Positions 4,907 to 64,000 of a stretch of DNA of 64,000 nucleotides are shown piece by piece. The DNA lies in the NCBI RefSeq assembly GCF_014280435.1, contig NZ_CP060388.1:372001-436000 (forward strand), written 5' to 3'. Origin of the DNA: Sphingobium sp. KCTC 72723 (GTDB taxonomy: Bacteria > Pseudomonadota > Alphaproteobacteria > Sphingomonadales > Sphingomonadaceae). Position numbers and translations under genes: made by a program. Under the pieces are notes generated by a model, which was not told where the DNA came from, made no database searches, and saw nothing but the letters and a program-made list of their open reading frames with translations. Position 1 is the first letter of the stretch. The number at the start of each line of letters is the position of its first letter.

Positions 4907-5286
4907 GAGCCGGGTGGGGCGTCGCTTCCGGGGGGAAGCGGCGCCAACTCCCTTGAAAAGGGGAGGGATCGCATATGGAACGCACCTTATTTTACTTCGT
5001 CATGCTGAACTCGTTTCAGCATCCATCATGCCCCCAAAGCTGCTGTTTGGGACGAGAAATGCACCCTGAAACAAGTTCAGGGTGACCATGAAGAAGGGGG
5101 TGGGTTCATATGCGATAGCCCTGCCTTGAAAGGGGAGGTGGCAGGGCTTAGCCCTGACGGAGGGGTGTTCCCCTCCCGATAGGGTTACACCCCTCCACCA
5201 TTCGCTTCGCGAACGGTCCCCCTCCCCCCCCCCTCGACTGCCCGCCTGCGGCAGGCGCTCAGGCCAGGCTTGCAGGGGAGGATTTC
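4907..5286. other. Intergenic region made of palindromic repeats
   Basis: No gene. It holds copy A of the dispersed repeat (4951-5137) and, from 5138 to about 5280, further C-rich palindromic sequence (for example AGGGGTGT..ACACCCCT around 5151-5198, and a C tract at 5220-5233), which separates the convergent hypothetical gene and pgl. Confidence 0.7.
4951..5137. repeat. Dispersed intergenic palindromic repeat, copy A
   Basis: The outer arms GGGATCGCATATG and CATATGCGATAGCCC, each bordered by a small CCTT..AAGGGGAGG palindrome, enclose two inner hairpins (CATGCTGAACTCGTTTCAGCAT and CACCCTGAAACAAGTTCAGGGTG). The same layout recurs at 29081, 33461, 44162 and 47411. It contains no open frame of its own. 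Confidence 0.85.
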
Positions 5287-32332: not shown

Positions 32333-32740
32333 TCAGGCGGCGGGACGGTGCATTTCTGCCGATCCCATGAAATGGGCGCGGGTCGATGGCCCGGCACTGT
32401 CCAGCAACGCAGCCACCTTGTCCCGCAAATTGGCGGAGGGTGCAGCCGGATCGTCGAAAGCCATGGCCCATTCGCCAAATTCGCGCGCGTCGATTTGCCC
32501 CTCGCGCAATTTCACGACGGCGCGGTGGCGTGGGTCGTCATGGATGCGGGCAAAGATGCGATCGACTGCGTCTTTTGGCCCTTCCAGCACCTGAAGGAAG
32601 CGGCGGCTGTTGAAGAGAAGCAGGCCGGTCACGTCGTCGCGCCGATTGCTGGTCGCCGAACGCTGCGCGATGGCTGCGCAGTCCTGCGGCGTGACCGTGC
32701 CGACCATCGTGCTGATATACATGATCTGATTGAAAGACAT
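32333..32740 (-). CDS. BLUF-domain blue-light sensor
   Basis: A 135-residue single-domain flavoprotein. The BLUF core is complete: the flavin-proximal Tyr in 'QIMYIST', the Asn in 'SNRRDDVTGLLLFNSRRFLQVLEGP' and the essential Gln in 'FLQVLEG'. No effector domain is fused, so it must act through a partner. GGGA lies 7 nt before the ATG at 32740; an ATG at 32746 is the alternative. It is transcribed alone, convergent with the GntP gene, and no obvious partner lies next to it. A second BLUF protein is encoded at 58872. Confidence 0.9.
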   Translation of the reverse strand: MSFNQIMYISTMVGTVTPQDCAAIAQRSATSNRRDDVTGLLLFNSRRFLQVLEGPKDAVDRIFARIHDDPRHRAVVKLREGQIDAREFGEWAMAFDDPAAPSANLRDKVAALLDSAGPSTRAHFMGSAEMHRPAA

Positions 32741-48839: not shown

Positions 48840-49158
48840 CGGCCACTTATCCTCTTTTTCCCGTCGCGCGCTGATTGGCGCGCTTTGACGGGAGAGGCAA
48901 GACCGTTATCTGTCGCATAAGGACAAAAATGGTAGCGGAGGAGTCGCTAAAAGTTCCGTGTCAGGCGGGTTCAGAGCGTCCGTAAGCACGTTGTAACGTT
49001 GGTAATTTTTCTTGTAGCCTGTTCGCGGTCGGTCGCCCTGATTTGCCTGAACCCGCATCGAAATGTGGGAACAAGAGTGGGATCATTTTTTGCTACGAAA
49101 TGTGGGACCAGTTTGTGGGAACACGGGCAGAAAATTCCCTAACAGGGAACCAAACCGT
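48840..49158. other. Left border region of the accessory segment
   Basis: 319 nt without a gene or tRNA. It has a 10-bp inverted repeat GCGGGTTCAG (48965-48974) / CTGAACCCGC (49047-49056) and, next to it, GTGGGA-type direct repeats (49059-49122). A longer in-frame reading of the integrase crosses the latter and is not used. This is the likely att/arm region. Confidence 0.5.
49059..49122. repeat. GTGGGA direct repeats before the integrase
   Basis: CGAAATGTGGGA(A/C)C occurs at 49059-49072 and 49096-49109 (13/14 identical), with a third shorter copy TTTGTGGGAAC at 49112-49122. Spacing and position suggest integrase arm-type binding sites or part of an att core. Confidence 0.55.
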
Positions 49159-50364
49159 ATGCCGCTGACAACTTTGAAAGTGAAGAACGCGAAACCCGGT
49201 CGCCATACCGATAGTCGAGGTCTCTGTCTGCTCGTGAAGGACAGCGGAGCGCGGACGTGGGTTCTGCGAATGCAGAGACACGGACAACGCCGTGACTATG
49301 GGTTGGGATCAGCGTTGGACGTATCGCTAGCCGAGGCGCGCGAAGCAGCCGCTGCGTTACGTCGCCGAGTCCGCGAGGGCTTCGATCCAGTCGCCGAGCG
49401 GCGGAAGGCGCGAAAGATCGTGCCCAACTTCGAAGCCGCGACTCGGACTTGCCACGAGACTTTACGCGAAGGCTGGAATGGCGGACACCATGCGAAGTGG
49501 CTTGCTAGCTTCGAAAAGCATCTGTTCCCGAAGATCGGCAAGAAGCCGGTAGATCAGGTAGATAGCGCCTGCGTGGTCGAGGCGCTCGCGCCGATCTGGC
49601 TCGAAATTCCGGAAACTGCCCGTCGCATTTTGCAGCGCATAAGCGTTGTTTTGGATTTCGCGCATGTCAAAGGCTGGGTGCCGGGGGAAGTGTCGCTGCG
49701 TTCCGTTCGCAAAGGGCTTCCACGCCAGAACGACAAGCGCGGTCATATGGAGGCCATGCCCTATATCGATGTTCCGGCACTTATGCAGAAGCTGGCGGCG
49801 GCAACTCCGACAACGGGCCGGGACTCTTTGCGCTTTACCATCTACAATGCCGTCCGCTCCAACGAGACGCGCTTTGCCGTCTGGACAGAGTTCGACTTGG
49901 ACAAGGGCATTTGGACCATTCCAGGCGAACGGATGAAGGCACGGGAAACCCATATCGTGCCATTGTCCGCGCCCGCTGTAGCGTTGCTACGCAAACGGTG
50001 GGACGAGCGCACCAGCGACACCGGCCTAGTGTTCTCGCTCAAAGGCGCAAAACCGATCAGCGACGTGACCATGACCAAGCTGTTACGAGATGACGGGATC
50101 GCTGGGATAACAGTCCACGGATTCCGCTCTTCGTTCACCGATTGGGTGGCAGAACGGACCCGTTTCCCCAAGGAGGTTGCCGATAAAGCCCTCGCGCACA
50201 AATTGCCGAACAAAGTCGAAGCCGCCTATAGGCGCACCGACTTTTTCGAGAAGCGCCGACATCTCATGGCGCGTTGGGCCGATTATCTGGACAAAGAGCC
50301 AGCAAAGAGAGACGGGGACGCGGCTGCCGAGTCCCCGCCGCCTACGCGCCGCGCTGCCGCCTGA
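49159..50364 (+). CDS. P4-type tyrosine integrase
   Basis: A 401-residue site-specific recombinase. The N-terminal DUF4102-type arm-binding region is 'MPLTTLKVKNAKPGRHTDSRGLCLLVKDSGARTWVLR', then a core-binding helical domain and the catalytic domain. Visible catalytic residues are Arg in 'NAVRSNETRFAVWTEFDL', His-x-x-Arg in 'TVHGFRSSF', His in 'ALAHKL' and Tyr in 'AAYRRTDFFEKRR'. The ATG at 49159 starts the conserved domain; a longer frame from 49063 reads through the direct repeats. It drives integration and excision of the element that begins here. No tRNA target is visible on this side. Confidence 0.92.
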   Translation: MPLTTLKVKNAKPGRHTDSRGLCLLVKDSGARTWVLRMQRHGQRRDYGLGSALDVSLAEAREAAAALRRRVREGFDPVAERRKARKIVPNFEAATRTCHETLREGWNGGHHAKWLASFEKHLFPKIGKKPVDQVDSACVVEALAPIWLEIPETARRILQRISVVLDFAHVKGWVPGEVSLRSVRKGLPRQNDKRGHMEAMPYIDVPALMQKLAAATPTTGRDSLRFTIYNAVRSNETRFAVWTEFDLDKGIWTIPGERMKARETHIVPLSAPAVALLRKRWDERTSDTGLVFSLKGAKPISDVTMTKLLRDDGIAGITVHGFRSSFTDWVAERTRFPKEVADKALAHKLPNKVEAAYRRTDFFEKRRHLMARWADYLDKEPAKRDGDAAAESPPPTRRAAA

Positions 50365-51199: not shown

Positions 51200-51589
51200 A
51201 TCGCGCGTATATTCAAAAACGGATGGTTCACTCGCTTTGCGCGGAAGGAGCGTATCTCCAACGCGGCGTTGCAGGATGCGGTGGACCGCGCGGAAAGCGG
51301 TCTGGTGGACGCCGATCTTGGCGGCGGCGTCATCAAGCAGCGCGTGGCCCGCGCTGGTCAGGGAAAATCGGGTGGGTATCGCACGCTGATCCTATTCCGG
51401 CAGGGCGACCGGGCCATATTCGCTTTCGGCTTCGCCAAGAGCTCACAAGCGAACATATCCAAGGCCGACTTGGCCCTGCTGCGCGAAGCGGCTGCTGAGG
51501 CGTTGGAATGGAGCGGCAAGGAACTGAACCGGCTGGTGGCGTCGGGAACATTAGTGGAGATCGAAGATGGGAACGACGATGAAGGATAA
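51200..51589 (+). CDS. HigB/RelE-type toxin, apparent ATC start
   Basis: A 129-residue toxin of the RelE/HigB-like family (mRNA interferase). Family landmarks are 'ARIFKNGWFTRFARKERIS', 'VDADLGGGVIKQRVARAGQGKSGGYRTLILFR', 'RAIFAFGFAKSSQANISKADLALLR'. Homologues start MARxFK, and here the corresponding codon is ATC at 51200, exactly 6 nt after a perfect AGGAGG. No ATG, GTG or TTG occurs between an in-frame TAA (51173) and ATC; the next is TTG at 51269, which would delete 23 conserved residues. Overlaps the antitoxin gene by 23 nt. Confidence 0.82.
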   Translation: MARIFKNGWFTRFARKERISNAALQDAVDRAESGLVDADLGGGVIKQRVARAGQGKSGGYRTLILFRQGDRAIFAFGFAKSSQANISKADLALLREAAAEALEWSGKELNRLVASGTLVEIEDGNDDEG

Positions 51590-51899
51590 AGGCTATCGCA
51601 GCGAGATCGCGGGCGCGATCCACGAAATGATGAGCGATGCGCATGACGCGGGCGTGGTGTCACGCGCGACGCTACGCACTTTTGATGAAGCGTGCCTTGC
51701 CCCGGCCCCCGCGTTGGCAGGCGATGAAATCCGGGCGATCCGCGAGCGCGAACATGTCTCACAGCCGGTGTTTGCCGCCTATCTCAATGTCTCGCGCAAT
51801 CTTGTGTCGGATTGGGAACGCGGCGTTAAGCGCCCTGGTGGGCCTGCACTACGCCTGCTGTCGATCATCCAACGTAAGGGATTGCAAGCGGTCGCGTAG
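51567..51899 (+). CDS. HigA-type antitoxin
   Basis: A 110-residue antitoxin. The N-terminal ~60 residues contact the toxin ('IAGAIHEMMSDAHDAGVVSRATLRTFDEACL'). The C-terminal Xre-type helix-turn-helix is 'IRAIREREHVSQPVFAAYLNVSRNLVSDWERGVKRPGGPALRLLSII'. GGAG lies 7 nt before the ATG at 51567. Co-transcribed after the toxin, the reverse order typical of higBA; it neutralises the toxin and represses the shared promoter. Confidence 0.92.
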   Translation: MGTTMKDKGYRSEIAGAIHEMMSDAHDAGVVSRATLRTFDEACLAPAPALAGDEIRAIREREHVSQPVFAAYLNVSRNLVSDWERGVKRPGGPALRLLSIIQRKGLQAVA

Positions 51900-52013
51900 C
51901 CTTGCCCGTCGCTTTTAACCGGCTTGATCTGTAAATTTGGCCGATTGCGGGATGACCGCTTTTGCGCGGCACGAATTACATTGCCGTCTTAGCTGGACTT
52001 TGTACGTTTTTTG

Positions 52014-52298
52014 TCAGGTCCAGGTCCAGAAGATGCTGTTGTTGGCGATGTGGTCCAGGGCCCGATCGAGGGGTAAGACGCATCCGCCCATATCGTCGAT
52101 ATCTTCCCATTGTCGCCGGTGTGACCAGTAACCGAGCCTGACTTCGTCGCGCGTGCCGACAGGCTTCAGGCGGGCGATCGGCGCCTCGGTTTCCAGCAGA
52201 TAGAGATGGTAGGCGCCTTTGTCCTGGTACCAACCCACGCCGCCGCCGTTAGCGGCGTCGAACGTTTCGATGCGCAGAATAATTTCGTCGTCTTTCAT
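52014..52298 (-). CDS. IS passenger gene, hypothetical protein
   Basis: A 94-residue Trp- and acid-rich soluble protein ('GGGVGWYQDKGAYHLYLLE', 'LGYWSHRRQWEDIDDMGG', ending 'NSIFWTWT'). It lies inside the IS ends, antisense to the transposase, and its stop is 7 nt from the left inverted repeat. The amino-acid composition is that of a real protein rather than a shadow frame. No family recognised. It may modulate transposition or be an unrelated cargo. Confidence 0.6.
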   Translation of the reverse strand: MKDDEIILRIETFDAANGGGVGWYQDKGAYHLYLLETEAPIARLKPVGTRDEVRLGYWSHRRQWEDIDDMGGCVLPLDRALDHIANNSIFWTWT

Positions 52299-52403
52299 GG
52301 TGCATCCATAGCTGCCGTCAGGTCACAGCGTATCCGATTCGTCTCGCCGCATGGCAACAGTCCAAGCGTTGCAACGTGCGGCAGTTAGGATTCGAAGCAT
52401 GGA

Positions 52404-53780
52404 ATGTTGGACCAGAACAGAGCCGTTGTCGGCGATCCCGTTCCCCAGATCCTGCGCCAATGGCTGCAGACGTGGCGTCCCTGCTTTACTGCACCCAGTT
52501 GGGAGCATGTGCTTGTTCTCGTGATGGGCGGCCTGCTGGCCACGGGCAAGCGGACTGTTACCTCTTGCCTGCGTGTGACTGGCAGGGCCCAGGCCGTCAA
52601 CTTCGCATCCTACCACCAGATCCTCAACCGCGCCCGCTGGAGCTCGCGTGCCGTTGCCAGGCGACTGCTTGGTATCATCGTCGAACGGCTCGTGCCCGAT
52701 GGCCCTGTTGTCATTGGCATGGACGACACCATCGAGCGGCGATGGGGGCGCCGGATCAACGCCCGTGGTATTTATCGCGACCCTGTCCGCTCCAGTCACG
52801 GCCATTTCGTCAAGGCCAGTGGGCTGCGGTGGCTCAGCTTCATGGTGCTCACCCCGGTGTCATGGACCAGCCTGATCAAGGCGCTGCCGATCCTGACGCT
52901 GCTTGCTCCTTCGGAACGATCCAACCTTCGACGCGGCTGTCGTCACAAGTTGCTGACGGACTGGGCCCGCCAGGGCGCACTGCAACTGTCTCGTTGGCTG
53001 CCAGGTCGTCGGATCATCTTCGTCGGCGATAGTAGCTTTGCCGTTCACCAATTGGCCCATGCCATTACGCCTCGGGCAACGCTCATCAGCCGGCTACGGC
53101 TGGATGCCAACCTGTTCGCACAGCCCCCGAAACGGACCTCATACACAGCAGGGCGGCCCGCACAAAAAGGGTCAGCGCTACCAAAACTCAAAACCCTACT
53201 CGCCAACCCGGCTACGCGCTGGGCAAGGATCCTCGTCTCCGCCTGGTACGGCCATGTCAACGGCAAGGCGCTCGAGATCACATCCGATACCGCCTTGTGG
53301 TACAGGCCCGGCACCCCGGTATTGCCGGTCCGATGGGTACTGGTCCGCGATCCCAACGGAAAGCGCGATCCGCAAGCCTTCTTCAGTACCGACATCACCC
53401 TCGAGCCCGCCGACATCATCGCCCTCTACGTCCGCCGATGGCAGATCGAAGTCACATTCGCCGAAACGCGCGCCCACCTGGGTGTCGAAACACAGCGCCA
53501 GTGGACCGACAATGCCATAGCCCGAACCACTCCGGCGCTGCTGGGACTCTACAGCCTCATATCGCTTTGGGCCTGCGATCTGCTTACCACTACCAGCATC
53601 CCCTACGCCGCCGCCTGGTATCGAAAAACCAATCTGACGTTCAGTGACGCTATCGCTGCCGTCCGGCTTCAACTCTGGGTCGGCGACATTAATTCACGCT
53701 CCCCGCCCCACCCAGAACCGCAATATATTCCGACAACCCGCCTCGTACGTATGGCTCAAGCGCTATGCTTCGCTACCTAA
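52404..53780 (+). CDS. IS701-family DDE transposase
   Basis: A 458-residue transposase. 'VIGMDDTIERRWGRRI' (first Asp), 'IIFVGDSSFAVHQLA' (second Asp) and 'YVRRWQIEVTFAETRAHLG' (Glu, with the YxxRWxIE signature) make up the DDE triad. The N-terminal region 'WEHVLVLVMGGLLATGKRTVTSCLR' fits the DDE_5/IS701 group. It appears full length and intact, starting from an ATG at 52404 and ending 1 nt before the right inverted repeat. Confidence 0.93.
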   Translation: MLDQNRAVVGDPVPQILRQWLQTWRPCFTAPSWEHVLVLVMGGLLATGKRTVTSCLRVTGRAQAVNFASYHQILNRARWSSRAVARRLLGIIVERLVPDGPVVIGMDDTIERRWGRRINARGIYRDPVRSSHGHFVKASGLRWLSFMVLTPVSWTSLIKALPILTLLAPSERSNLRRGCRHKLLTDWARQGALQLSRWLPGRRIIFVGDSSFAVHQLAHAITPRATLISRLRLDANLFAQPPKRTSYTAGRPAQKGSALPKLKTLLANPATRWARILVSAWYGHVNGKALEITSDTALWYRPGTPVLPVRWVLVRDPNGKRDPQAFFSTDITLEPADIIALYVRRWQIEVTFAETRAHLGVETQRQWTDNAIARTTPALLGLYSLISLWACDLLTTTSIPYAAAWYRKTNLTFSDAIAAVRLQLWVGDINSRSPPHPEPQYIPTTRLVRMAQALCFAT

Positions 53781-53831
53781 TCGTACAAAGTCCAGCTAAG
53801 GTAGCCAATACGCCTATGAGGGATGCGTCAA

Positions 53832-55370
53832 ATGGATAAGAGGAAGGGAACTCCGACGGAACAGGCCGCGGCTGAATTGCGGGTAGACTCCTTCCGTAAA
53901 GCGCTCGGCCCGTTTGTTGTTGCGGCTGAAACAACCCGGATGGCAATGATCTTTACAGATGCGCTAATCGAAGGGCATCCGATTGTATTTGCCAATGACA
54001 GCTTTCTTGCGCTTTCTGGATTTTATCGGACCACGCTTTTAGGAAAAGGCGTTGGATATATTCTGCAGCAGCTAGCTGATTATAATGCGCTTTCGTCGAT
54101 CGAGCACGCGCTTAATTCTGGCACGGACGGAACCTGGGAAGCGAAGTGCCGCTGCGCAGATGGAAGCGAATATCTCGCGACTGTCTTCCTCAGTCCGGTT
54201 CGAGGTAACCATGGCGTTGTTCTTCAGCACGTTTGGTTTTTTGTGGAGGTAAGCCGACGCATTGATCGACTTCTTCGGCAGCGTGCTCAGTTCGACAAAC
54301 TCTATGAGCAAGCGCCTGGGTTCATCGCGACGTCGGAAGGCAACGATCACCGGTTCACCTTTGCCAATGAATCATACAGACGTCTGGTCGGGCGCGATGA
54401 CCTGGTCGGATGTACCGTCGCCGAGGCACTGCCTGAGGTTGCGGAACAGGGGCTAGTCAAGCTGTTGGACGAGGTGCTCGCGACAGGAGAGCCATTCATC
54501 GCCCGCAACAGGCCTATGCGCTTGGGGCGCAATAACATCGCGAAGGTTCATTACCTTAACTTCGTATATCAGCCGATACGCGACGAGGGCGGCGCGATTA
54601 CCGGGGTATTTTGCGCAGGATATGACGTTACGGCAGAGCGTGAGGCTGCGGAAAAGCTATCGCTGCTGCAGGATGAGGTAGCTCATCTTTCTCGTATCAA
54701 CGCCATGGGCATGATGGCTGCGACATTAGCGCATGAACTTAACCAACCACTGACCGCGATCTCTAGCTATGCCGCCGGCGGCGTCCGTCTAGTAAACCCG
54801 GCTTCCCGAAACTCCGAGGCGCTCATAGGCGCATTGGAAGCAACGCAAGAGGCAGCGCAGCGCGCCGCCGAGATAATTCGCAATGTCCGGGAACTAACCC
54901 GCCGAGGCGAAACGACCAAAATGTCGTTCGACTTAGGGGCCGCAATCGCGGAATGCGTGCGCCTGGTCGGTGCGGGCGGTTGCCCCGACGTGCCGATTGA
55001 TGATCAAACCGCAGCGGGATTATCCCTCTTTGGTGATCGTATTCAAATTCAGCAGGTCATCATCAACCTGCTTCGCAACGGCTGCGAAGCGGCGGGTGCC
55101 TCGATCAAGCCCTGCGTCGTCATCAGCGCGTCATCGAAGGACGATCTGGTGGTCGTGAGCGTTACCGATACCGGCGAAGGACTTTCCCTGGAGGCGGCGC
55201 AGAACATCTTCACCTGGACTGACTCTTCCAAGGGTTCCGGGATGGGTCTTGGCCTATCGATCTCGCGAACCATCGTCGAAGCGCATAGCGGGCGCATCTG
55301 GCTGGAAAAGAGCGGTGCGTCGGGCACGCAGTTCTGCTTTTCGATACCGAATGGAGTATCTCATGGCTGA
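53832..55370 (+). CDS. PAS/LOV-like sensor histidine kinase without photoactive Cys
   Basis: A 512-residue soluble kinase. Residues ~30-145 form a PAS domain with LOV-like flow ('VFANDSFLALSGFYRTTLLGKGVGYILQQ', 'FLSPVRGNHGVVLQHVWFFVEVSRR'), but the LOV motif GRNCRFLQ reads GKGVGYILQ, so the flavin-binding Cys is Val. A second PAS (~155-275) follows. The kinase core has 'HLSRINAMGMMAATLAHELNQPLTAI' (His), 'QQVIINLLRNGCEAA' (N-box) and 'GSGMGLGLSISRTIVEAHSG' (G-box), FixL-like. GAGGG favours ATG 53832 over 53823. The IS ends 33 nt upstream, so its native promoter is displaced. Confidence 0.88.
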   Translation: MDKRKGTPTEQAAAELRVDSFRKALGPFVVAAETTRMAMIFTDALIEGHPIVFANDSFLALSGFYRTTLLGKGVGYILQQLADYNALSSIEHALNSGTDGTWEAKCRCADGSEYLATVFLSPVRGNHGVVLQHVWFFVEVSRRIDRLLRQRAQFDKLYEQAPGFIATSEGNDHRFTFANESYRRLVGRDDLVGCTVAEALPEVAEQGLVKLLDEVLATGEPFIARNRPMRLGRNNIAKVHYLNFVYQPIRDEGGAITGVFCAGYDVTAEREAAEKLSLLQDEVAHLSRINAMGMMAATLAHELNQPLTAISSYAAGGVRLVNPASRNSEALIGALEATQEAAQRAAEIIRNVRELTRRGETTKMSFDLGAAIAECVRLVGAGGCPDVPIDDQTAAGLSLFGDRIQIQQVIINLLRNGCEAAGASIKPCVVISASSKDDLVVVSVTDTGEGLSLEAAQNIFTWTDSSKGSGMGLGLSISRTIVEAHSGRIWLEKSGASGTQFCFSIPNGVSHG

Positions 55371-56070
55371 GGCAGTGATTGAAGACAAATCTGTCGCTGC
55401 GGGTACAGCATCAGCTATCCCCGCTCCTGCCACGGTAACACAGGCCCCAGAGGCGGTTCGACGGGTCTATATAGTGGACGACGATAGCATGGTTCGACGT
55501 TCATTATCCTTTACCTTGAACACAGCTGGATTTCTAACTCGCGCGTTCATGTCCGGGAGGGACTTCCTCGATGAGACCGACAGCCTTTCGACAGGCTGCG
55601 TGCTGCTGGACGTGCGGATGCCGGACATGGATGGCATTGCGGTTCTTGAGGAGCTCGGCCGAAAAAGCCTGTTATTTCCGGTGATAATCATGACAGGACA
55701 TGGCGACGTAGAAACTGCCGTTAGAGCCATGAAGCAAGGCGCGGATGATTTCATCGAGAAGCCATTCACCGACGCGGCTCTTATGGAGATGCTCGAGGCG
55801 TTGTTCGCAAACCTGCCTGCACGGATGGAAGCGCAAGTCGAACGGATGAAGGCGCAAGCCAGTGTGACGAAGCTTACTGCGCGGGAGAGAGAACTCCTAC
55901 AAGGCCTTGTCGCGGGTCTGTCCAACAAAGAAATAGCAACACGGCTGGACATCAGCGTACGCACGGTTGAGATGCACCGCTCCAACCTGATGAACCGTCT
56001 AGGTGTGGATACATTCGCTGAGCTCATCCGCACCGCAATACTGGCGCAAGTGAAGCCGCTTCAGCTATGA
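55363..56070 (+). CDS. FixJ/LuxR-family response regulator
   Basis: A 235-residue two-component regulator. After a ~30-residue Ala/Pro N-terminus, the receiver has 'VYIVDDDSMVRRSL', the Asp in 'CVLLDVRMPDMDGIAVLEEL', Thr in 'VIIMTGHGDVETAV' and Lys in 'DFIEKPFTDAAL'. The C-terminal LuxR helix-turn-helix is 'LTARERELLQGLVAGLSNKEIATRLDISVRTVEMHRSNLMNRLGV'. GGAG lies 7 nt before the ATG at 55363, which overlaps the kinase stop by 8 nt. Cognate partner of the LOV-like kinase; targets probably include the adjacent c-di-GMP genes. Confidence 0.93.
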   Translation: MAEAVIEDKSVAAGTASAIPAPATVTQAPEAVRRVYIVDDDSMVRRSLSFTLNTAGFLTRAFMSGRDFLDETDSLSTGCVLLDVRMPDMDGIAVLEELGRKSLLFPVIIMTGHGDVETAVRAMKQGADDFIEKPFTDAALMEMLEALFANLPARMEAQVERMKAQASVTKLTARERELLQGLVAGLSNKEIATRLDISVRTVEMHRSNLMNRLGVDTFAELIRTAILAQVKPLQL

Positions 56071-56127
56071 TCTCCCAAGGCATGTCGGTATATGCCTCCG
56101 CCTCTTCTTTTACGGGCCGAGTTTTAC

Positions 56128-56715
56128 TCAGTTTTCATGGCTAGTGAGGTGAATGCCAGCTCTCCCTCCCTTGGACCACCGCATCACACCCCGTCGCTCG
56201 AGTCCTTCGCCAAGGACGACCTTAACCGGCAGACCTTCTACAAAACCCGAGGTGTGGACCTGTTCGGCACGAGGAGAGGAACCTCCCATTTCGACCAGAT
56301 TAATTTTGCCTTCCCTCTGGGCGGCATCCTCTGTCATCACCCCAACGGGCTGTATGCCACCACTGCAGCTTCCTTTGGCCCATTGAGCGAGCAGCCCCCC
56401 CTTGTCGATTGGCAAGGAGAGCCGCACACCGCAGGCATCCCTGCTTGTCCAGACTACAGTCCCCTCAACGCCATCAGCGTTGGTAATCTGCACCGTGATC
56501 ACATCCCCAAAGCAGATTGGAAGGCTGTGGCGCAACATCATTCCTTCGTCAGAGATATTCTGTAGTCGGGCCGAACCCTCATAATGTTCGCATTGGACCT
56601 TGACCACGCGCAAAGACGCAGGCGTCCGATCAGACCTTCGCTGTTCTTCCCAGTACCAGGATCGTGGACCGCCGATTACTGCGGCCCATTTCAGAGCTAG
56701 TTTGCAATGGTTCAT
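56128..56715 (-). CDS. Tandem PilZ-domain protein
   Basis: A 195-residue c-di-GMP receptor candidate. The first domain has both binding motifs: RxxxR in 'EEQRRSDRTPASLRVVK' and NxSxxG in 'ARLQNISDEGMMLRH', followed by 'GTVVWTSRDACGVRL'. The second half ('INLVEMGGSSPRAEQV', 'GLPVKVVLGEGLERRGVMRWSKGGRAGIHL') is a PilZ-like barrel without the arginine motif. GAGGAG lies ~10 nt before the ATG. It is divergent from the phosphodiesterase gene, facing the regulator gene. Output partner unknown. Confidence 0.85.
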   Translation of the reverse strand: MNHCKLALKWAAVIGGPRSWYWEEQRRSDRTPASLRVVKVQCEHYEGSARLQNISDEGMMLRHSLPICFGDVITVQITNADGVEGTVVWTSRDACGVRLSLPIDKGGLLAQWAKGSCSGGIQPVGVMTEDAAQREGKINLVEMGGSSPRAEQVHTSGFVEGLPVKVVLGEGLERRGVMRWSKGGRAGIHLTSHEN

Positions 56716-57063
56716 GATGTTTTAGCTCCTCTCGGGAGCAAAAGTGACGCTTGATCTTGCTGAGCGATAGATCGGATGATTACGGGAGCCGCCATTAACG
56801 ATTCAGTAACGGAGACGCGGAGGTAGCTCCTTTGAAGAGGTTACGGCTTCCTGAACACGCCGCCCGTATTTACCACGGATTGCCATCACCTACGAGAATG
56901 ACGATACACATATTCATAAGCATTGCAGGGCAAGACCTGCGACACAAGGAGCGAGCCATTTGCACCGGACCGAGGAATATAAGCCTTTTGTGGTGCCGGC
57001 TGCGAACTCGCCTGAGGGTAGAATTGGCCGGGTGCGGCCTATTCGCTCCGGGGGAGGAGACAA
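56716..57063. other. Divergent regulatory region between PilZ and phosphodiesterase genes
   Basis: 348 nt with no gene. It contains a small hairpin GCTCC-TCTC-GGGAGC (56727-56741) in the PilZ leader and A/T-rich stretches, but no promoter consensus was pinned down. Both adjacent signalling genes must be driven from here, making it the likely target of the FixJ-type regulator. Confidence 0.4.
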
Positions 57064-58863
57064 ATGAAGCATGTGTCTTTCATGAATACCCGCGCAGTCC
57101 CGCTGTCTGCTCCTCACGGCCTTACAAGTCTTGCGAACTGTCTGCCTCTTTCGGCTCCGAGAGAAGGGGTTGCGGACGCTTTTATCCAACAGACCGCGGA
57201 CCCTGTACTGCTCCTTAACGCAGAGGGCAGCGTGCTTTGGGCAAACGCAAGCGCACTGGCGCAAGTCGATGCCATGCACGTCGAGGGGATCGGAAGGCGC
57301 TGGGAGCAGGTCTGGGCAAATGATTACCGTGCGGACGCAATGGCAGCGTTCGATATGGCTTTGGCCCATGGGCGTGCAAGGTTTTCAGCTGCCAGCCAAG
57401 CTAGCGATGAAGTGACGCGGGAATGGGATGTCACTCTCACGCAGATAGGCGACATGACGCTCGGGAGCCTGAATATCATCGCCTTGGCGCGGGAAGTGAA
57501 GGGTCAGGATGCCGGCGCAAGCCATCTCCGCCGAGGAGATTTGCACGATGCCCTCACCGGCTTACCCAACAGAATGGGTGTCCAACAGGAACTCCATAGG
57601 AGGACTTCGCGACTTGTCGCCGACGGCGGCCGATTTGCACTGGCGATTTTGGATATAGACGGCTTCAAACAATTAAACAGCCGCCTCGGGCAGAAGGCCT
57701 GCGACGCCATACTTATTGAATTTGCAAACACCATGGCACAAGCAGCAAATGACCATCTGTTTGTTGCCAGAGTGGAAGGCGATCAGTTCGCCCTCCTTGT
57801 AGATGCTGTGCTAGACCCTGATAAGATTGTCACCCAGATTGAGCGTTTGATCCAACAATGCGCTGATCGGGTCCTGAACAGCACAGATATAGCCAGCTTC
57901 TCCGTAAGCGCGGGGGTAACGATATTCCCGAACGATGGTGAAACGGACCAGGAGCTACTTCAAAACGCGCGCACGGCGTTGGAACACGCCAGGAGAGCAC
58001 GCCATGGCAAGACTGTCCTTTTCAACGGCAGCATGCGCCAGCAGCTCCAGCGCCACTCGTCGATGCTGGAAGTAGCCAAGGTGGCGATCGCCAGTGACTG
58101 GATAAAACCCTATTACCAGCCCAAGGTGGACTTGCAGTCTGGCCGCGTGATTGGCCTGGAAGCGCTGCTGCGGTGGCAGCGGCCTGGTGCGCCGGTCGAA
58201 CTACCCGCCAGCATCCTTGCCGCCTTCGACGACCCCGAACTTGCCACATGCATCAGTGAGAGGATGCAGAATAAAGTTCTGACTGACATCGCGGCTTGGA
58301 AGCGGGCGGGGTCCGCCCTGCCCGTGGCCATAAACGCGTCGGCGGCTGACTTCCGCAATCCGGACTTCGCGGGCAAGTTTCTGAACCAACTCTATAAGGC
58401 CAATATTCCAACTCACCTCCTCGAGCTTGAAGTGACCGAGGGCGTGTTCCTCGGGATTGGCGCGGCGGATGTAGGAGTCGCCCTGCGGGAACTCAACGCG
58501 GCGGGCGTGCGTATATCTCTCGATGACTTTGGAACAGGCTATGCGTCGCTTTCCCATCTCAAAGAGCATCCGGTCGATATCCTCAAGATCGATCGAAGCT
58601 TTGTCAACAATTTGCCGGACAGTCCCGATGACCGCGCGATCGTGAGCGCGATGATAGGCCTTGGGCGCAACCTTGCGATTGAAGTGGTAGCCGAGGGTAT
58701 AGAAACTATGGAACAGGCTACTCTATTGCGCGATATGGGCTGCCACACCGGCCAGGGCTTTTTATTCAGCCGGGCAATTCCCGGCGCGCTAGTGCCTCAC
58801 CTTACTCGTCAACATCTGATGGCAGGCAGCGAGCCACAGACCCTGCCGCGACGCGCGTCATAG
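57064..58863 (+). CDS. PAS-degenerate GGDEF-EAL c-di-GMP phosphodiesterase
   Basis: A 599-residue cytoplasmic enzyme. A PAS-like domain (~40-145) precedes a GGDEF domain (~160-315) whose active site reads 'RVEGDQFALL', so the cyclase is inactive and may only bind GTP. The EAL domain (~330-590) is complete: 'EALLRW', 'INASAADF', 'LELEVTEGVFL', 'SLDDFGTGYASL', 'KIDRSFV', 'EVVAEGIET' and 'GQGFLFS'. It should hydrolyse c-di-GMP. A perfect GAGGAG lies 5 nt before the ATG. A BLUF gene follows after 8 nt, implying light control. Confidence 0.93.
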   Translation: MKHVSFMNTRAVPLSAPHGLTSLANCLPLSAPREGVADAFIQQTADPVLLLNAEGSVLWANASALAQVDAMHVEGIGRRWEQVWANDYRADAMAAFDMALAHGRARFSAASQASDEVTREWDVTLTQIGDMTLGSLNIIALAREVKGQDAGASHLRRGDLHDALTGLPNRMGVQQELHRRTSRLVADGGRFALAILDIDGFKQLNSRLGQKACDAILIEFANTMAQAANDHLFVARVEGDQFALLVDAVLDPDKIVTQIERLIQQCADRVLNSTDIASFSVSAGVTIFPNDGETDQELLQNARTALEHARRARHGKTVLFNGSMRQQLQRHSSMLEVAKVAIASDWIKPYYQPKVDLQSGRVIGLEALLRWQRPGAPVELPASILAAFDDPELATCISERMQNKVLTDIAAWKRAGSALPVAINASAADFRNPDFAGKFLNQLYKANIPTHLLELEVTEGVFLGIGAADVGVALRELNAAGVRISLDDFGTGYASLSHLKEHPVDILKIDRSFVNNLPDSPDDRAIVSAMIGLGRNLAIEVVAEGIETMEQATLLRDMGCHTGQGFLFSRAIPGALVPHLTRQHLMAGSEPQTLPRRAS

Positions 58864-58871
58864 AAGGCGAA

Positions 58872-59312
58872 ATGCACATGTTCAGCTTATTATATGCGAG
58901 CCGGAGCACCCTGCAGCCTAGCGAAGCCGATGCCGCGGTTAAAGCCCTTGTGAGCGCTGGTCGATCGCGTAACGAAAAGGCCGATGTAACTGGCTGCCTG
59001 GTTTTCGGCGCTGGAAGATTTGCTCAGATACTGGAAGGGGAGCAATCCGCTGTGGAGGACATCATGCGCAGCATCCTGCGCGACCCTCGCCATACTGAGG
59101 TCGCCATCCTTCAACAGGGCGAGGCGGCTACCCGCCGGTTCGCCGATTGGACGCTTGGCTATGCCGGGCCCTCCTTGTTCGTTCAGCGCACGATCGCCCG
59201 GCCCGTGTCGGAGGCTCTTCGCGGGTCAAAGCGAGGTATGGCAGACCTCATTCATGTCATGACTGAATTCCACGCGAAGCAGACGATTGCCTCGTCACTA
59301 CCAAGTGCCTGA
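58872..59312 (+). CDS. BLUF-domain blue-light sensor paired with EAL protein
   Basis: A 146-residue flavoprotein: Tyr in 'FSLLYASRSTL', Asn in 'RNEKADVTGCLVFGAGRFAQILEGEQ' and the switch Gln in 'FAQILEG' are all present, so photochemistry should be intact. A ~40-residue helical C-terminal extension follows ('ARPVSEALRGSKRGMADLIHVMTEF'), a likely partner-binding region. It starts 8 nt after the EAL gene, so the two are co-transcribed. The arrangement resembles the PapB (BLUF) / PapA (EAL) system of Rhodopseudomonas palustris, where the BLUF protein regulates phosphodiesterase activity. Confidence 0.93.
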   Translation: MHMFSLLYASRSTLQPSEADAAVKALVSAGRSRNEKADVTGCLVFGAGRFAQILEGEQSAVEDIMRSILRDPRHTEVAILQQGEAATRRFADWTLGYAGPSLFVQRTIARPVSEALRGSKRGMADLIHVMTEFHAKQTIASSLPSA

Positions 59313-59870
59313 TGAGTCAAACTATTATTGCTGGCGGAACTCCCGCGGGAATGAACTTTTCTTAAGGGACTTGTAGATATGCTCGGGACGGGGTCAACTA
59401 CTGGAGCAGGAGCGAGGGCCTTGAATGATCGTCAACTCACCGACGAAGAAGGTAGACTTTCAGCCCTTGAGCGATATCAGATTCTCGACACCGCGCGCGA
59501 AGCGTCGTTCGACAAGATCACAGGCCTGGTCCGGGATATTCTCGATGTGCCGATCTGCGCCGTATCCCTGGTCGACCAGGAGCGCCAGTGGTTCAAGTCC
59601 ATCCAGGGCCTGGACTCTGCCGAGACGCCCCGAAACGTCGCGTTCTGCGCTCACACCATATTGAAGCGCACGCCCATGGTCGTACCCGACGCAGTGCTCG
59701 ACCCGCGGTTCGCCTCAAACCCCCTTGTGACAGGCGATCCAGGAATCAGAAGTGATGCCGGAATGCCGCTGCGAACACCAGACGGTTACAACCTTGGCCC
59801 TCCGTGCCAACGATGATGAGACAACGCGCCGCCGGTAATTTACCCTTGAGGGCGCGGATGAGATATCACC

Positions 59871-60347
59871 ATGGTTATGCCGCGTATTCCAAACGACGAG
59901 ATCCCCGCCGCCGCTGGCGCTGCCACCGAGGAAGGCCGCAGGCCAACGCTGGTGGCAGCGCCAGCGGCGGCATCGCCTGAGCTATCCGGCCGGCCGCATC
60001 GCCGGAACTTTACCGCCCAATATAAGCTGCGGATCTTGGATGAGATCGATCATGCAGCCGGCACTGTGGGGGCGATCGGTGCCATCTTGCGGCGCGAGGG
60101 GATTTATTCCTCCTCGATCACCGAGTGGCGGCGGCTTCGCGCTGCTGGGGCATTTGAGGCACTGAGCTCTGTGAAGCGTGGACCCAAGCCGGCAGCATCC
60201 AATTCGCTGTCGGCGGAGTTTGCTCAACTGCAGCGTGACAATAAGCGTCTTCAGCAACGGCTGGAGCGGGCTGAAGCTGTGATCGACATTCAACAAAAAG
60301 TCGCGCTTTTGATAGGCTTACCGATCGAGAGCGACGAGAAGCTGTGA
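59871..60347 (+). CDS. IS3-family transposase OrfA-type subunit
   Basis: A 158-residue DNA-binding subunit. 'RRNFTAQYKLRILDEIDHAAGTVGAIGAILRREGIYSSSITEWRRLRAAG' is the IS3-type helix-turn-helix, followed by a leucine-zipper-like coiled coil 'LQRDNKRLQQRLERAEAVIDIQQKVALLIG'. Its end overlaps OrfB by 4 nt. It appears intact. Confidence 0.9.
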   Translation: MVMPRIPNDEIPAAAGAATEEGRRPTLVAAPAAASPELSGRPHRRNFTAQYKLRILDEIDHAAGTVGAIGAILRREGIYSSSITEWRRLRAAGAFEALSSVKRGPKPAASNSLSAEFAQLQRDNKRLQQRLERAEAVIDIQQKVALLIGLPIESDEKL

Positions 60348-61357
60348 TGGACGCGCTGGCTACACTGGGCCCCAGCTCCGGCATTCTTGCAGCGGCGTGT
60401 GACGCACTGGGCGTGTCGCGTGCGACCTTCCATCGTCGCCGGGCTGCTTTGGCGCGACCTGTGGCTGCTCGTCGTCTGCGGCCAGCGCCGGCCCGTACGA
60501 TCCTGGGGCCCGAGCGCCAGCACATTATCGATCTGCTGCGAGAGCCGCACTTTGCGGATCTCGCGCCCGCCGAGATCTACGCCACGCTGCTCGACCAAGG
60601 CATCTACCATTGTTCGATCCGCACAATGTACCGGATCCTCCACGAGCATCAGGAAGTTCGCGAGCGCCGCCAGCAACTTCGTCACCCCGTCTATCAGAAA
60701 CCCGAGCTGCTGGCCCAAGGTCCCAATCAGGTCTGGTCCTGGGACATCACCAAGCTCATGGGGCCGAGTAAATGGACATACTTCTACCTCTATGTAATCA
60801 TTGATATATTTAGTCGGCGCGTCGTTGGATGGCACATCGCCGACACTGAAAGCGCCGCTCTGTTCAAGCCGTTGTTCGAAGACTGCGTCGCCAAACATGG
60901 CGTCGCCCCTGGCCAGCTCACCCTCCACGCCGATCGTGGTCCATCGATGAAAGCCAAGGCCACCGCCCTCATGCTCGCCGATCTCGGCGTCACCAAATCG
61001 CACAGCCGGCCGTATACCTCGAACGACAATCCCTTCTCGGAAAGCCACTTCAAGACCATGAAGTATCAGCCCCAGTTCCCAAAACGCTTCGGCTGCAACC
61101 AAGACGCCAAGACCTTTTGCCGACACTTCTTCACTTGGTATAACCGAGACCACCATCATCTCGGGATCGGCCTGATGACGCCCGACCAGGTACATTACGG
61201 ACAGGCAGATGCAGTCCATGCCGCCCGCCAGACGATCCTCGAAAAAGCCTTCCGCGCCAACCCCGAGCGCTTCGTCAACCAAGTTCCTCGACCGCCGCAA
61301 AAACCCACTGCCGTGTGGATCAATCCACCAGCAAGGGAGCCAGCTCCGGTCGCTTAA
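60344..61357 (+). CDS. IS3-family transposase OrfB (DDE integrase)
   Basis: A 337-residue rve-type transposase. The catalytic residues are in 'NQVWSWDITKLMGPSKW' (Asp), 'LTLHADRGPSMKAKA' (Asp) and 'YTSNDNPFSESHFKTMKYQPQFP' (Glu, D-D-35-E spacing). It overlaps OrfA by 4 nt, so expression is by reinitiation or coupling rather than an evident frameshift. Intact and probably functional. Confidence 0.92.
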   Translation: MMDALATLGPSSGILAAACDALGVSRATFHRRRAALARPVAARRLRPAPARTILGPERQHIIDLLREPHFADLAPAEIYATLLDQGIYHCSIRTMYRILHEHQEVRERRQQLRHPVYQKPELLAQGPNQVWSWDITKLMGPSKWTYFYLYVIIDIFSRRVVGWHIADTESAALFKPLFEDCVAKHGVAPGQLTLHADRGPSMKAKATALMLADLGVTKSHSRPYTSNDNPFSESHFKTMKYQPQFPKRFGCNQDAKTFCRHFFTWYNRDHHHLGIGLMTPDQVHYGQADAVHAARQTILEKAFRANPERFVNQVPRPPQKPTAVWINPPAREPAPVA

Positions 61358-62022
61358 ACTCTCGATCCGGCTGTCTCACAATCGTTGACACGTTCCGTGG
61401 CTCGCTTTGCGTTATCGATGTGCAGCCTCGGAACTTCAGCGAAGGACAGATCAGCATTCTTAATAAGTTTGCAGGGCTGATCATCGATGAACTAGAGCTT
61501 CGCACACTTGCTCATCGTGACTCTCTCACAGGCGCAGCCACTCGGCGTTCTTTTATCGAGGATGGTGAAAAAGCCATATCCCGGCTCGATCGCTATGGCC
61601 GACCGTGCGCCCTCATCCTCTTTGATCTAGATCACTTCAAGCAAATCAACGATGGTTTTGGCCACCCGGCGGGGGATGAGGTCCTCAAAGCTATCGCGGA
61701 TTGCTGTCGAGCAACGCTCAGGCCCGCCGATATCCTCGGTCGGCTTGGAGGTGAAGAGTTTGGGGTCTTGCTCAATGAAACTAGCTTAAAGGACGCCATC
61801 GCCTTTGCCGAGCGCCTCCGCACCCAATTTCCACGTTTGGCGTTCGACTGGGCTCCTCATCTGAGAATTACCGCCAGCTTTGGCGTATCAGAGATCGGAG
61901 CGGGTCATTCGCTTGATCATTGCATCAGCGTAACGGATGCTGCTTTGTTCAAAGCCAAGCGCGGCGGACGCAACAGAACCATCAGCAGCAACAAGCTCGA
62001 GAGCTGCGCGGTCGCCGCTTGA

Positions 62023-62331
62023 TGCGGCTGTGATGACAGCAATCGAGGAGCCGATGACGCTGACTGCGGGAAATACGGTACGGGGCGCTTACCGCGTTTT
62101 AAAACCATCAACGTAAACAGGCTCTGGCAAGTCGGCGTAACGTCCCCACCCGCCGAGTGCACTTCGATCAACCCGGCGCTCACCCCCGTGGGCGTCGGGA
62201 AATTCGGCAGGAACGCTGAAGATAGCGAACTTGCTGGTTGCGCGCGGAATCTCGCCGCGTCGGTATGATCGTGGAATGATCTTCTGATCCCCCGATCTAC
62301 TACCCGTCTATCGTTTGAGGGGAGCAATTCA
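62023..62331. other. Intergenic region before the PilZ gene
   Basis: 309 nt with no supported gene. One long minus-strand frame crosses it but is antisense to the GGDEF end and lacks a domain. GAGGGGAG at 62319-62326 is the ribosome-binding site of the next gene. No promoter identified. Confidence 0.4.
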
Positions 62332-62856
62332 ATGCTTAAGTCCCTACAGATCGGATACAAGCCGCGTGAGACGCGCTATCCTGTACTGATTCCAGCCCGA
62401 ATGCGCGCGGCACCCTCATGGACAGACGTGGTGATCCATAACCTTTCGGCCCATGGCGCGCTTATCGCATGCGACAATCCGCCAGACCGCGGTGCCTATG
62501 TTGACATCCGGCGGGGCCAGCAAACAATCGTGGGACGAGTAGTTTGGAAAAAGGATAGGTTCTTCGGCATCCGGGCACAGGGAACGATCGACATAGCTGC
62601 GATTATGAACGAACCCCGCATGGCGCGCCGTCTGGAGATGGTGAAGAGCCCAGCCAGCATGTTCGACCGCCGCGCACAGAATCGAATAAAGCAAGATGCT
62701 GATATAGCGCGACAGTTGGAAAAAAGCCGTCTCTGGTCGTCGGCATTCCAGTCGAGCATTCTTATAGCCGCAGGGCTCTTTGCTGCCGGATGCGCTGCCG
62801 CCGAGGTATATGAAGCTCTGGCAACGCCTTTTCCCGCACTGGAAAATCATCTATAG
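62332..62856 (+). CDS. PilZ-domain protein with C-terminal membrane helix
   Basis: A 174-residue protein. The PilZ pattern is 'RETRYPVLIPARMRAAPSWTDVVIHNLSAHGALIACDNPP' with NxSxxG intact, but the arginine motif reads RxxR rather than RxxxR, so c-di-GMP binding may be weak. After 'GRVVWKKDRFFGIRAQG' a charged helix leads to a membrane segment ('SSILIAAGLFAAGCAAA', ~145-162). GAGGGGAG lies ~6 nt before the ATG. It could tether a c-di-GMP response at the inner membrane. Neighbours are the broken cyclase and broken EAL-REC genes. Confidence 0.82.
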   Translation: MLKSLQIGYKPRETRYPVLIPARMRAAPSWTDVVIHNLSAHGALIACDNPPDRGAYVDIRRGQQTIVGRVVWKKDRFFGIRAQGTIDIAAIMNEPRMARRLEMVKSPASMFDRRAQNRIKQDADIARQLEKSRLWSSAFQSSILIAAGLFAAGCAAAEVYEALATPFPALENHL

Positions 62857-63029
62857 CCACCTGCGTCCGACGGAAATGCGGCCGGATTACGCAGTTTCGG
62901 CGCTGCTCCGGCAGGTTCGACGTTATCGGACCTGACGCGAAGTTGTCGGAACGCATTTGGCACCGCGACGCATAATATAGTCTAAAAATTTCACCGAACA
63001 AATTGCTGCAGCTTCCAAACTTTAGGCCA

Positions 63030-64000
63030 TCAAGTGTCGATCATCTCGCCGATCTTGTTTGCTAGTTCGCTAGTTCTGTCATCACGAAGGGCTTAGTGAT
63101 GACCTCCATCCCCGGTTCGAGATGGCCGTTGCCCACTGCTGCATTTTCGGCAAATCCTTTGACAAAGAGTATCTTCAGATCGGGCCGTTGAACTCTCGAG
63201 GCATCGGCGACCTGACGGCCATTCATGCCGCCCGGCAGCCCAACGTCCGTTATCAAGAGGTCGATGCGCACGCCCCTTTGAAGGATTTTCAGGCCTGACG
63301 AACCGTCCTCTGCTTCCAGAGCCTTATACCCCGCTTCTTCCAGCACGTCGACGATGAGCATGCGCACAGTGGGCTCATCATCAATGACAAGGACGGTCAC
63401 TCCGGAACCCACCTCCTCGATCGCAACGTCACCGTGGACTGGTTCATGGTCCAGAGACCCCGAATAGCGCGGCAAGTAGACGCACGTCTCATCACGCCAC
63501 GAGACGCCTGTGTTGTCGGCAAGCAGGAACGGAATCTCGTTCGCTTCCACCGCGCAGCCGAAGTAGAAGCCTTGGCCAAGTACGCAGCCCTCCTTGAGCA
63601 GCAACCGTCGCTGGAGCTCAGTCTCAACGCCTTCTGCGACAACGTCGATTTTCAGGCTGCGCGCGAGCCCCAAGACAGCAGGCACAATGGCGCGAACCTA
63701 CTGGTCAATGGTCATTTTTTCGACGAACGAACGGTCGATCTTGACGACGTCTACCGGATAATCCCGAAGGTGGGACAGCGAGTAATGCCCGGTGCCGAAA
63801 TCATCCAGCGCGATCCGAACGCCTGTCTCGTGCAGTAACTTGAGAGCACGCCCGACGAAATCAGCCCCCCGGTCCAGGAATACGTGCTCGGTAATTTCAA
63901 CCTCTATCAGCGAAGGCGGTAAGGAATAGTCGGTGATCCGCTGGATGAGCCGCTCGGCGAAGTCATCTCGAATGAACTCGGCCGGAGCAGCGTTCATCGC
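63030..64000 (-). pseudogene. EAL-REC protein gene with amber codon and 8-bp duplication
   Basis: The 5' end lies beyond the window. One continuous frame encodes an EAL domain ('NAAPAEFIRDDFAERLI', 'EVEITEHVFLDRG', 'ALDDFGTGHYSL', 'KIDRSFVEKMTIDQ') broken by an in-frame TAG at 63698-63700, then 'VRAIVPAVLGLARSLKIDVVAEGVET' and 'LGQGFYFG'. A receiver domain follows ('VLVIDDEPTVRML', 'LLITDVGLPGGMNG', 'VITKPF') whose usual Thr is Lys ('ILFVKGF'). An 8-nt duplication CTAGCGAA/CTAGCAAA at 63062-63077 creates an early stop; without it the frame would end at 63030. Both lesions point to loss of function. Confidence 0.85.

What the first reader, a model, noticed from the sequence alone, without database searches (positions are those of the whole stretch)
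53832..64000. Light- and redox-type c-di-GMP signalling island behind a P4 integrase
Within 10 kb lie a LOV-like kinase, a FixJ-type regulator, two PilZ proteins, a PAS-GGDEF-EAL phosphodiesterase, a BLUF sensor, a GAF-GGDEF cyclase and an EAL-REC gene. All lie on the accessory side of an integrase, and the DNA is visibly richer in A/T than the rest. Every layer of a c-di-GMP circuit is present (sensor, synthesis, breakdown, receptor), which looks like a transferable behavioural module. Two members are broken here, so this copy may be decaying or rewired.
Basis: partly seen in the sequence, partly recalled or inferred. Interest (0 to 1): 0.85.

Follow-up and report, generated by a model that had tools for sequence, protein, structure and literature searches.

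The report
Mobile sphingomonad blue-light c-di-GMP cassette
A small set of genes that may let a soil bacterium use blue light to break down the messenger c-di-GMP sits between two identical jumping sequences; its four core genes are kept together in another genus, and this type of light-sensor gene is often found beside the same kind of regulator in related bacteria.

Summary
The genes are there; the reading needs changing. The real unit is a four-gene core: FixL-like kinase, FixJ-like regulator, PAS-GGDEF-EAL, BLUF, found in the same order in a second sphingomonad genus at 57-66% protein identity. Here it lies in a 15.45-kb composite-transposon-like unit between two direct IS701 copies with identical bodies; the eight other full-length matches listed are 87-89% identical. 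No att repeat of the nearby integrase was found. The kinase lacks the LOV cysteine, as do its 120 listed relatives, so BLUF is the credible light sensor. Both cyclase sites are damaged (IS3 insertion; EGDQF where nine relatives keep GGDEF/DGDEF) but the EAL residues are intact, so this copy should only degrade c-di-GMP. 'EAL-REC' is a chimeric scar. Wider pattern: group-A BLUF genes lie within 4 kb of a FixJ-type regulator in 32 of 60 cases, clade-B BLUF genes in 0 of 50; PilZ is close in 15 and EAL in 7 of the 60. Most likely: a PapB-PapA-like light-controlled phosphodiesterase tied to a two-component system. Light control is inferred, not shown.

The parts
49063..50364 (+). P4-type tyrosine integrase (Arm-DNA-bind_3, Phage_int_M, Phage_integrase); neighbour, not shown to move the cassette
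   Evidence: Pfam; no att repeat
51988..53800 (+). IS-L: IS701-family element with its end repeats; body identical to IS-R at G000:C1:437627-439439 (65627-67439 on the window scale), same orientation
53823..55370 (+). FixL-like histidine kinase, PAS_9-PAS_4-HisKA-HATPase; LOV-like PAS without the adduct cysteine; start codon 22 bp from the end of IS-L
55351..56070 (+). FixJ-type response regulator (REC + LuxR HTH) from the ATG that overlaps the kinase gene (another ATG at 55363; scans used the frame from 55357)
56128..56715 (-). PilZ protein 1; RxxxR and NxSxxG motifs present
57064..58863 (+). PAS-GGDEF-EAL; EAL catalytic residues intact, GGDEF motif degenerate (EGDQF)
58872..59312 (+). Short BLUF protein with Tyr8, Asn34, Gln52; 8 bp behind the EAL gene
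59379..59798 (+). First part of a GAF-GGDEF gene (GAF)
59799..61398 (+). IS3-family element inside the GAF-GGDEF gene (ends approximate)
61399..62022 (+). Second part of the GAF-GGDEF gene (GGEEF motif, upstream RxxD)
62332..62856 (+). PilZ protein 2; belongs with the RAC03-plasmid-like piece; NxSxxG present, no RxxxR before it
63062..64000 (-). Chimeric remnant: N-truncated EAL (in-frame TAG at 63698) fused to the C-terminus of a hybrid kinase (REC)

Best explanation
A conserved sphingomonad four-gene cassette (FixL-like kinase, FixJ-like regulator, PAS-GGDEF-EAL, short BLUF) lies between two IS701 copies and is now a decaying, degradation-biased copy. Shown: conserved order, IS pair, intact EAL and BLUF key residues, lost cyclase signatures. 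Inferred: the BLUF protein binds the EAL protein, as PapB binds PapA in Rhodopseudomonas palustris, and blue light raises its phosphodiesterase activity. Inferred: the kinase, which answers to a signal other than LOV-type light, phosphorylates FixJ, which sets expression of the EAL-BLUF pair and/or the PilZ gene. The net effect would be lower c-di-GMP in blue light, favouring motility or release from biofilm. To the right of the BLUF gene lie an IS-split cyclase gene and recombination debris.
For: Same gene order in G151 with identities 60/63/57/66% for kinase, FixJ, EAL, BLUF; EAL and BLUF genes overlap by 4 nt there and are 8 nt apart here. Kinase, EAL and BLUF relatives share contig lengths 5742 and 10967; kinase and EAL share 18526 and 23720 (linkage inferred from equal length only). 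EAL catalytic motifs are kept in the seven complete relatives among the nine best (two are partial records). BLUF Tyr and Asn are kept in 24 of 25 aligned sequences (one gap) and Gln in 25 of 25. BLUF fold: best matches BlrB and TePixD. An EAL gene lies within 1.5 kb in 7 of 60 group-A and 0 of 50 clade-B BLUF copies. BLUF and neighbouring FixJ co-diverge: Mantel r 0.75, 0 of 2000 permutations, 30 pairs; 0.46, 9 of 2000 without the PilZ group, 15 pairs. IS pair. PapB-PapA precedent: passages of review PMC8846402.
Against: No measurement of light response, complex formation or activity. PapA is described as a solo-EAL protein, whereas this one is PAS-GGDEF-EAL. In G207 the kinase-FixJ-BLUF set has no EAL, and for contigs 3585885 and 2288361 the lists show kinase and BLUF but no EAL (the EAL list is the best 120 of 3944), so EAL is not the only partner. 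The GTA-N4-TAC palindrome of the PilZ-type clusters is absent from the window and G151 regions scanned. IS-L ends 22 bp before the kinase start, so the original promoter is probably lost and expression is uncertain. None of the 93 other same-genus genomes searched carries a close copy of the EAL gene (best 45%).
Confidence: 0.55

Rival explanations
1. The BLUF protein is primarily a light-sensing partner of the two-component system (kinase or FixJ), and EAL and PilZ are regulated outputs rather than its binding partners.
For: A FixJ-type regulator lies within 4 kb of group-A BLUF in 32 of 60 copies, against 7 of 60 for EAL within 1.5 kb. In L168, L169, L173 and L177 the BLUF gene lies on the opposite strand between kinase and FixJ genes. 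G207 has kinase-FixJ-BLUF without EAL. Seven kinases near BLUF carry PAS domains and none has the LOV NC[RK] motif. BLUF and FixJ co-diverge. BLUF units are known as parts of some kinases (passage of PMC6798134).
Against: Neighbourhood is not interaction; the loci are related by descent, so the counts are not independent; 28 of 60 group-A copies have no FixJ-type gene within 4 kb. In the window BLUF follows EAL at 8 nt.
Confidence: 0.3
2. The region is an IS-driven junkyard in which c-di-GMP genes collected by chance, without a functional unit.
For: IS3 insertion, chimeric EAL-REC, displaced kinase promoter, degenerate GGDEF, several IS elements and a TraA-type relaxase nearby.
Against: The four-gene core has the same order in another genus, with intact catalytic and flavin-switch residues. 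Chance explains only the part to the right of BLUF.
Confidence: 0.15
3. One reading: one transferable light and redox c-di-GMP island carried by the P4-type integrase, with a LOV kinase as a second light sensor.
For: Integrase about 3.5 kb away and low GC.
Against: No direct 15-mer shared between the integrase region and 24 kb to the right; no cysteine at the adduct column in 121 aligned kinases; right-hand genes come from a different locus; own IS701 pair. Cysteine-less LOV proteins can still be photoreduced if they bind flavin (abstract of PMC4682037), so light sensing by this PAS is unlikely, not excluded.
Confidence: 0.05

Closest known systems
PapB-PapA of Rhodopseudomonas palustris (BLUF protein acting in trans on an EAL phosphodiesterase)
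   Same: Separate short BLUF and EAL proteins; EAL catalytic residues and BLUF Tyr/Gln present; genes adjacent here.
   Different: Partner here is PAS-GGDEF-EAL, not solo EAL; a FixL/FixJ-like pair is attached. PapB/PapA sequences were not compared here.
BlrP1 of Klebsiella pneumoniae (BLUF-EAL in one chain)
   Same: Same two functional domains.
   Different: Two genes instead of one; only 42.7-45.5 bits (BLUF) and 79.7 bits (EAL) to BlrP1 chains.
FixL-FixJ and the engineered light kinase YF1-FixJ
   Same: Kinase-regulator pair of that type; best solved match of the regulator is FixJ 5xso.
   Different: Below the NCBIfam cut-offs of FixL (192 of 850 bits) and FixJ (221.3 of 255); no LOV cysteine.
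LOV kinase LOV-1477 / DGC-2902 / mPilZ-1753 of Erythrobacter flavus 21-3 (order Sphingomonadales, recalled)
   Same: Light-to-c-di-GMP route with kinase, cyclase and PilZ receptor (passages).
   Different: There light raises c-di-GMP through a LOV kinase and a cyclase; here BLUF and a phosphodiesterase, with broken cyclases.
Composite (IS-bracketed) transposons
   Same: Two direct IS copies with identical bodies, 15.45 kb in all.
   Different: Movement as a unit not shown; end duplications ambiguous.

Membership tests
PapB-PapA type trans-acting BLUF/EAL pair | Short BLUF protein with flavin-switch residues Tyr, Asn, Gln | tested here: met
   Tyr8, Asn34, Gln52; fold (residue roles recalled)
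PapB-PapA type trans-acting BLUF/EAL pair | Separate EAL protein with catalytic residues | tested here: met
PapB-PapA type trans-acting BLUF/EAL pair | Partner is a solo-EAL protein | tested here: not met
   PAS-GGDEF-EAL; PapA described as solo EAL
PapB-PapA type trans-acting BLUF/EAL pair | Physical complex and light-dependent activity | not testable with these tools
   needs bench work
LOV photoreceptor kinase | Adduct-forming cysteine in the GxNCRFLQ motif | tested here: not met
   0 of 121 aligned kinases, own included (some lack the domain); alignment to phototropin LOV
FixL / FixJ equivalogs | NCBIfam curated cut-offs | tested here: not met
   192 vs 850 and 221.3 vs 255 bits
Active diguanylate cyclase (EAL protein) | GGDEF/GGEEF signature | tested here: not met
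   EGDQF; the nine best relatives have GGDEF (8) or DGDEF (1)
Active c-di-GMP phosphodiesterase | EAL, N, E, DDFG, K, E, Q motifs (recalled) | tested here: met
c-di-GMP-binding PilZ (PilZ-1) | RxxxR and [DN]xSxxG (recalled) | tested here: met
Composite transposon | Two near-identical flanking IS copies | tested here: met
   one difference in 1812 bases, in the end repeat
Composite transposon | Matching target duplication at the outer ends | tested here: inconclusive
   outer ends CTTAG/CTTAG match and IS-L alone mismatches (CTTAG/CTAAG), but IS-R alone matches too and the site is preferred
P4-integrase genomic island | att direct repeats at both ends | tested here: inconclusive
   no shared direct 15-mer within 24 kb to the right; farther or shorter repeats not searched

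The most novel reading that the evidence does not exclude
Sphingomonads hold a group of short BLUF proteins that act as soluble light inputs to FixL/FixJ-like two-component systems, with c-di-GMP parts (PilZ receptor or EAL phosphodiesterase) as linked outputs, spread on plasmids and chromosomes and, here, on an IS701 composite element.
Probability: 0.35. Interest if true: 0.7.

Novelty: new variant of a known kind. Interest (0 to 1): 0.5.

Why it matters
If true, it links blue light, two-component signalling and c-di-GMP in one conserved gene set, part of it plasmid-borne, and gives a testable partner for a BLUF protein that has no output domain of its own. It would also give compact parts for light control of c-di-GMP. 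In this strain it shows how such a set decays: both synthesis sites are damaged and the breakdown enzyme is not.

Tried and rejected
Rejected: LOV photoreception by the kinase; the integrase as vehicle (limited to direct 15-mers and 24 kb on the right); EAL-REC as a designed regulator; the GAF-GGDEF as part of the core (no second GGDEF in L083). Led nowhere: the genome-contig scan with the kinase found only one 22% match; plasmid searches with the EAL and BLUF proteins found nothing at 60% or more (capped at 5000 records, 241 records); the genus of G151 gave no second copy (one other genome); a 25-bp block shared upstream of the EAL gene in the window and G151 is weak (3 of 300 shuffles reach it); promoter and terminator scan near chance level. 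Paper searches in the held library: BLUF+Sphingomonas+c-di-GMP 0 papers; BLUF+PilZ+response regulator 17 papers, 15 listed; BLUF+FixJ+histidine kinase 12; blue light+Sphingomonadales+c-di-GMP+biofilm 1; two of BLUF/sphingomonad/FixJ/Sphingobium 671, 20 listed. Beyond listings I saw passages of PMC8846402, PMC12172448, PMC4844311 and PMC6798134 and the outline with abstract of PMC4682037. None describes this gene set in what I saw; PMC4844311 tabulates two short BLUFs in Sphingobium xenophagum. Subscription papers are not held.

Limits of the neighbourhood survey: all 83 BLUF matches (genus) and all 27 family matches (two of them in the genus list too) were examined, 110 BLUF copies with extra copies on the same loci. 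A first sample of 83 copies gave 32 of 52 against 0 of 31; the 27 added later hold no further FixJ neighbour, so group A fell to 32 of 60 while clade B rose to 0 of 50. The support of clade B is 0.758 in the full tree (0.996 in the first); group A is simply the rest. Several contigs end near the BLUF gene (for example L244, L245, L263), which can hide neighbours. Neighbour domains came from home-made profiles, checked by Pfam for 17 proteins. The palindrome pattern was chosen after looking at the same sequences, and some of those loci are near-identical. Fisher values (FixJ 4e-11, PilZ 0.003, EAL 0.015) ignore relatedness. The IS701 count rests on 40 scored of 66 candidates.
Full report
What is there. 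Pfam confirms a PAS-PAS histidine kinase, a REC-LuxR regulator, PilZ, PAS-GGDEF-EAL, BLUF, a GAF piece, a GGDEF piece, a second PilZ, and EAL/REC pieces. The window is G000:C1:372001-436000 of a 4.43-Mb, two-contig genome. The genus is Sphingobium by inference: two same-genus genomes have contigs of exactly the lengths of pEP1 of Sphingobium sp. EP60837 (269215) and pTK1 of Sphingobium sp. TKS (520614).

The boundaries. An IS701-family element (307.5 bits, cut-off 170) ends 22 bp before the kinase start codon. A second copy lies in the same orientation at G000:C1:437627-439439; the two differ by one base in 1812, and that base is in the end repeat. The eight other full-length matches listed are 87-89% identical. 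The pair spans 15452 bp. End repeats are CTNAG: six of eight other copies have matching ends; IS-L does not (CTTAG/CTAAG), IS-R does, and the two outer ends match. This fits movement as one unit or recombination between copies, and proves neither. The integrase region (48.5-51.9 kb) shares no direct 15-mer with the 24 kb right of the window. Farther right lie more transposases, a third IS701 copy (88%) and, 8 kb from the unit, a Ti-type TraA/MobQ relaxase.

The conserved core. None of the 93 other same-genus genomes searched has a close EAL copy (best 45%), and the best BLUF among 60 relatives is 42%. In the family (397 genomes, drawn evenly) one other genome, G151, has an EAL relative at 57%, and around it kinase, FixJ, EAL and BLUF in the same order, at 60, 63, 57 and 66% identity. 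There, judged by eye from the ORFs, they lie between a TonB receptor and a transporter gene on one side and an aldo/keto reductase gene on the other; home-made profiles show no PilZ in that 20 kb, and IS elements were not sought. Protein searches give further pieces whose longest contigs have equal lengths: kinase, EAL and BLUF on 5742 and 10967; kinase and EAL on 18526 and 23720; kinase and BLUF on 3585885 (87 and 83%) and 2288361. I read this as linkage; it was not seen directly, and one equal length (7731) joins records named for different genera. Related kinases stand in 8 of 397 family genomes at E up to 1e-110; BLUF is beside four of them (window, G151, G207, G413).

The parts. The kinase's first PAS domain is most like LOV domains of solved structures, but has GKGVGYILQ where phototropin has GRNCRFLQ; no cysteine stands at that column in any of 121 aligned kinases, own included, the others being the 120 listed of 432 hits. 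BLUF keeps Tyr8, Asn34 and Gln52, and its model (pLDDT 91) matches BlrB, TePixD and AppA. The EAL domain keeps the catalytic motifs, while its GGDEF motif is EGDQF; the nine best relatives have GGDEF (eight) or DGDEF (one). The separate GAF-GGDEF gene, with GGEEF and an upstream RxxD, is interrupted by an IS3-family element (176.5 bits, cut-off 160). So both synthesis sites of this unit are damaged and breakdown is not. The genome has other EAL proteins (five further matches in G000). PilZ-1 has both binding motifs, PilZ-2 only one.

The right-hand debris. Window 62289-63485 is 87% identical to a piece of plasmid pBSY17_1 of Sphingobium sp. RAC03 that carries a PilZ gene and a hybrid kinase. 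The REC part of 'EAL-REC' is 94% identical over 140 residues to the end of that kinase; the EAL parts are 50-53% identical to the cassette's own EAL and lack its first third. The junction and the truncation mark this as a recombination scar.

The wider pattern. I examined all 83 BLUF matches of the genus and all 27 family matches at E up to 1e-20, 110 copies in all. The tree has a clade B (50 copies, support 0.758), all from the genus, and the rest, group A (60, of which 33 in the genus). A FixJ-type REC-LuxR gene lies within 4 kb in 32 of 60 A and 0 of 50 B; PilZ within 500 bp in 15 of 60 and 2 of 50; EAL within 1.5 kb in 7 of 60 and 0 of 50. Within the genus, group A has FixJ in 20, PilZ in 15 and EAL in 4 of 33. 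Without the window, G151 and the two loci picked by their kinase, FixJ stands at 28 of 56. A recurrent form is FixJ and PilZ divergent from BLUF, seen on the plasmids pEP1 and pTK1 and on other contigs. In 14 of 15 such PilZ-BLUF gaps a GTA-N4-TAC palindrome occurs (shuffle mean 0.33, maximum 4, of 15), and in 3 of 9 FixJ-BLUF gaps without PilZ. It was not found in the window or G151 regions scanned. BLUF and FixJ distances correlate (30 pairs, r 0.75, 0 of 2000; 15 pairs without PilZ, r 0.46, 9 of 2000).

How it most likely works. By precedent of PapB-PapA (passages in PMC8846402) the short BLUF protein would bind the EAL protein and raise its activity in blue light. The kinase would pass a non-LOV signal to FixJ, which would set transcription of the set. 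The alternative, that BLUF feeds the two-component system itself, is favoured by loci without EAL and by BLUF genes lying between kinase and FixJ genes (L168, L169, L173, L177); BLUF units inside kinases are known (passage of PMC6798134). Both may hold. None of these steps is shown.

Verdict. The finding of most interest is outside the given coordinates: the tie of one group of sphingomonad BLUF proteins to FixJ-type regulators with c-di-GMP parts. I found no description of it in what I saw of the held papers (listings; passages).

Noticed in passing
window 32441-32740 (-): A second BLUF gene, of clade B, without c-di-GMP or FixJ-type neighbours by the profiles used.
   Followed up: partly
window 51269-51899 (+): RelE-family toxin gene next to an HTH gene, a likely toxin-antitoxin pair between integrase and IS-L.
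   Followed up: partly
L010:7467-10460 (-): Ti-type TraA / MobQ relaxase about 8 kb right of the unit, so the neighbourhood is plasmid- or ICE-like.
   Followed up: partly
L183-L189, L204-L209, PilZ-BLUF gaps: By eye, an inverted repeat (GGCGAGGCGCA ... TGCGCCTCGCC followed by TTTACT) before the BLUF gene in many of the PilZ-type clusters, role unknown.
   Followed up: no
L194 and L199: Tandem pairs of BLUF genes, one copy very divergent (17-19 bits to the window BLUF).
   Followed up: no
L186, L187 (pEP1 and a relative): Two group-A BLUF genes about 5.3 kb apart, only one with the PilZ-FixJ pair directly beside it.
   Followed up: no
L243:3461-10371 (Novosphingobium resinovorum pSA2): A related IS701 copy (87%) lies next to a GAF-type kinase gene and about 2 kb from a GGDEF gene.
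   Followed up: no
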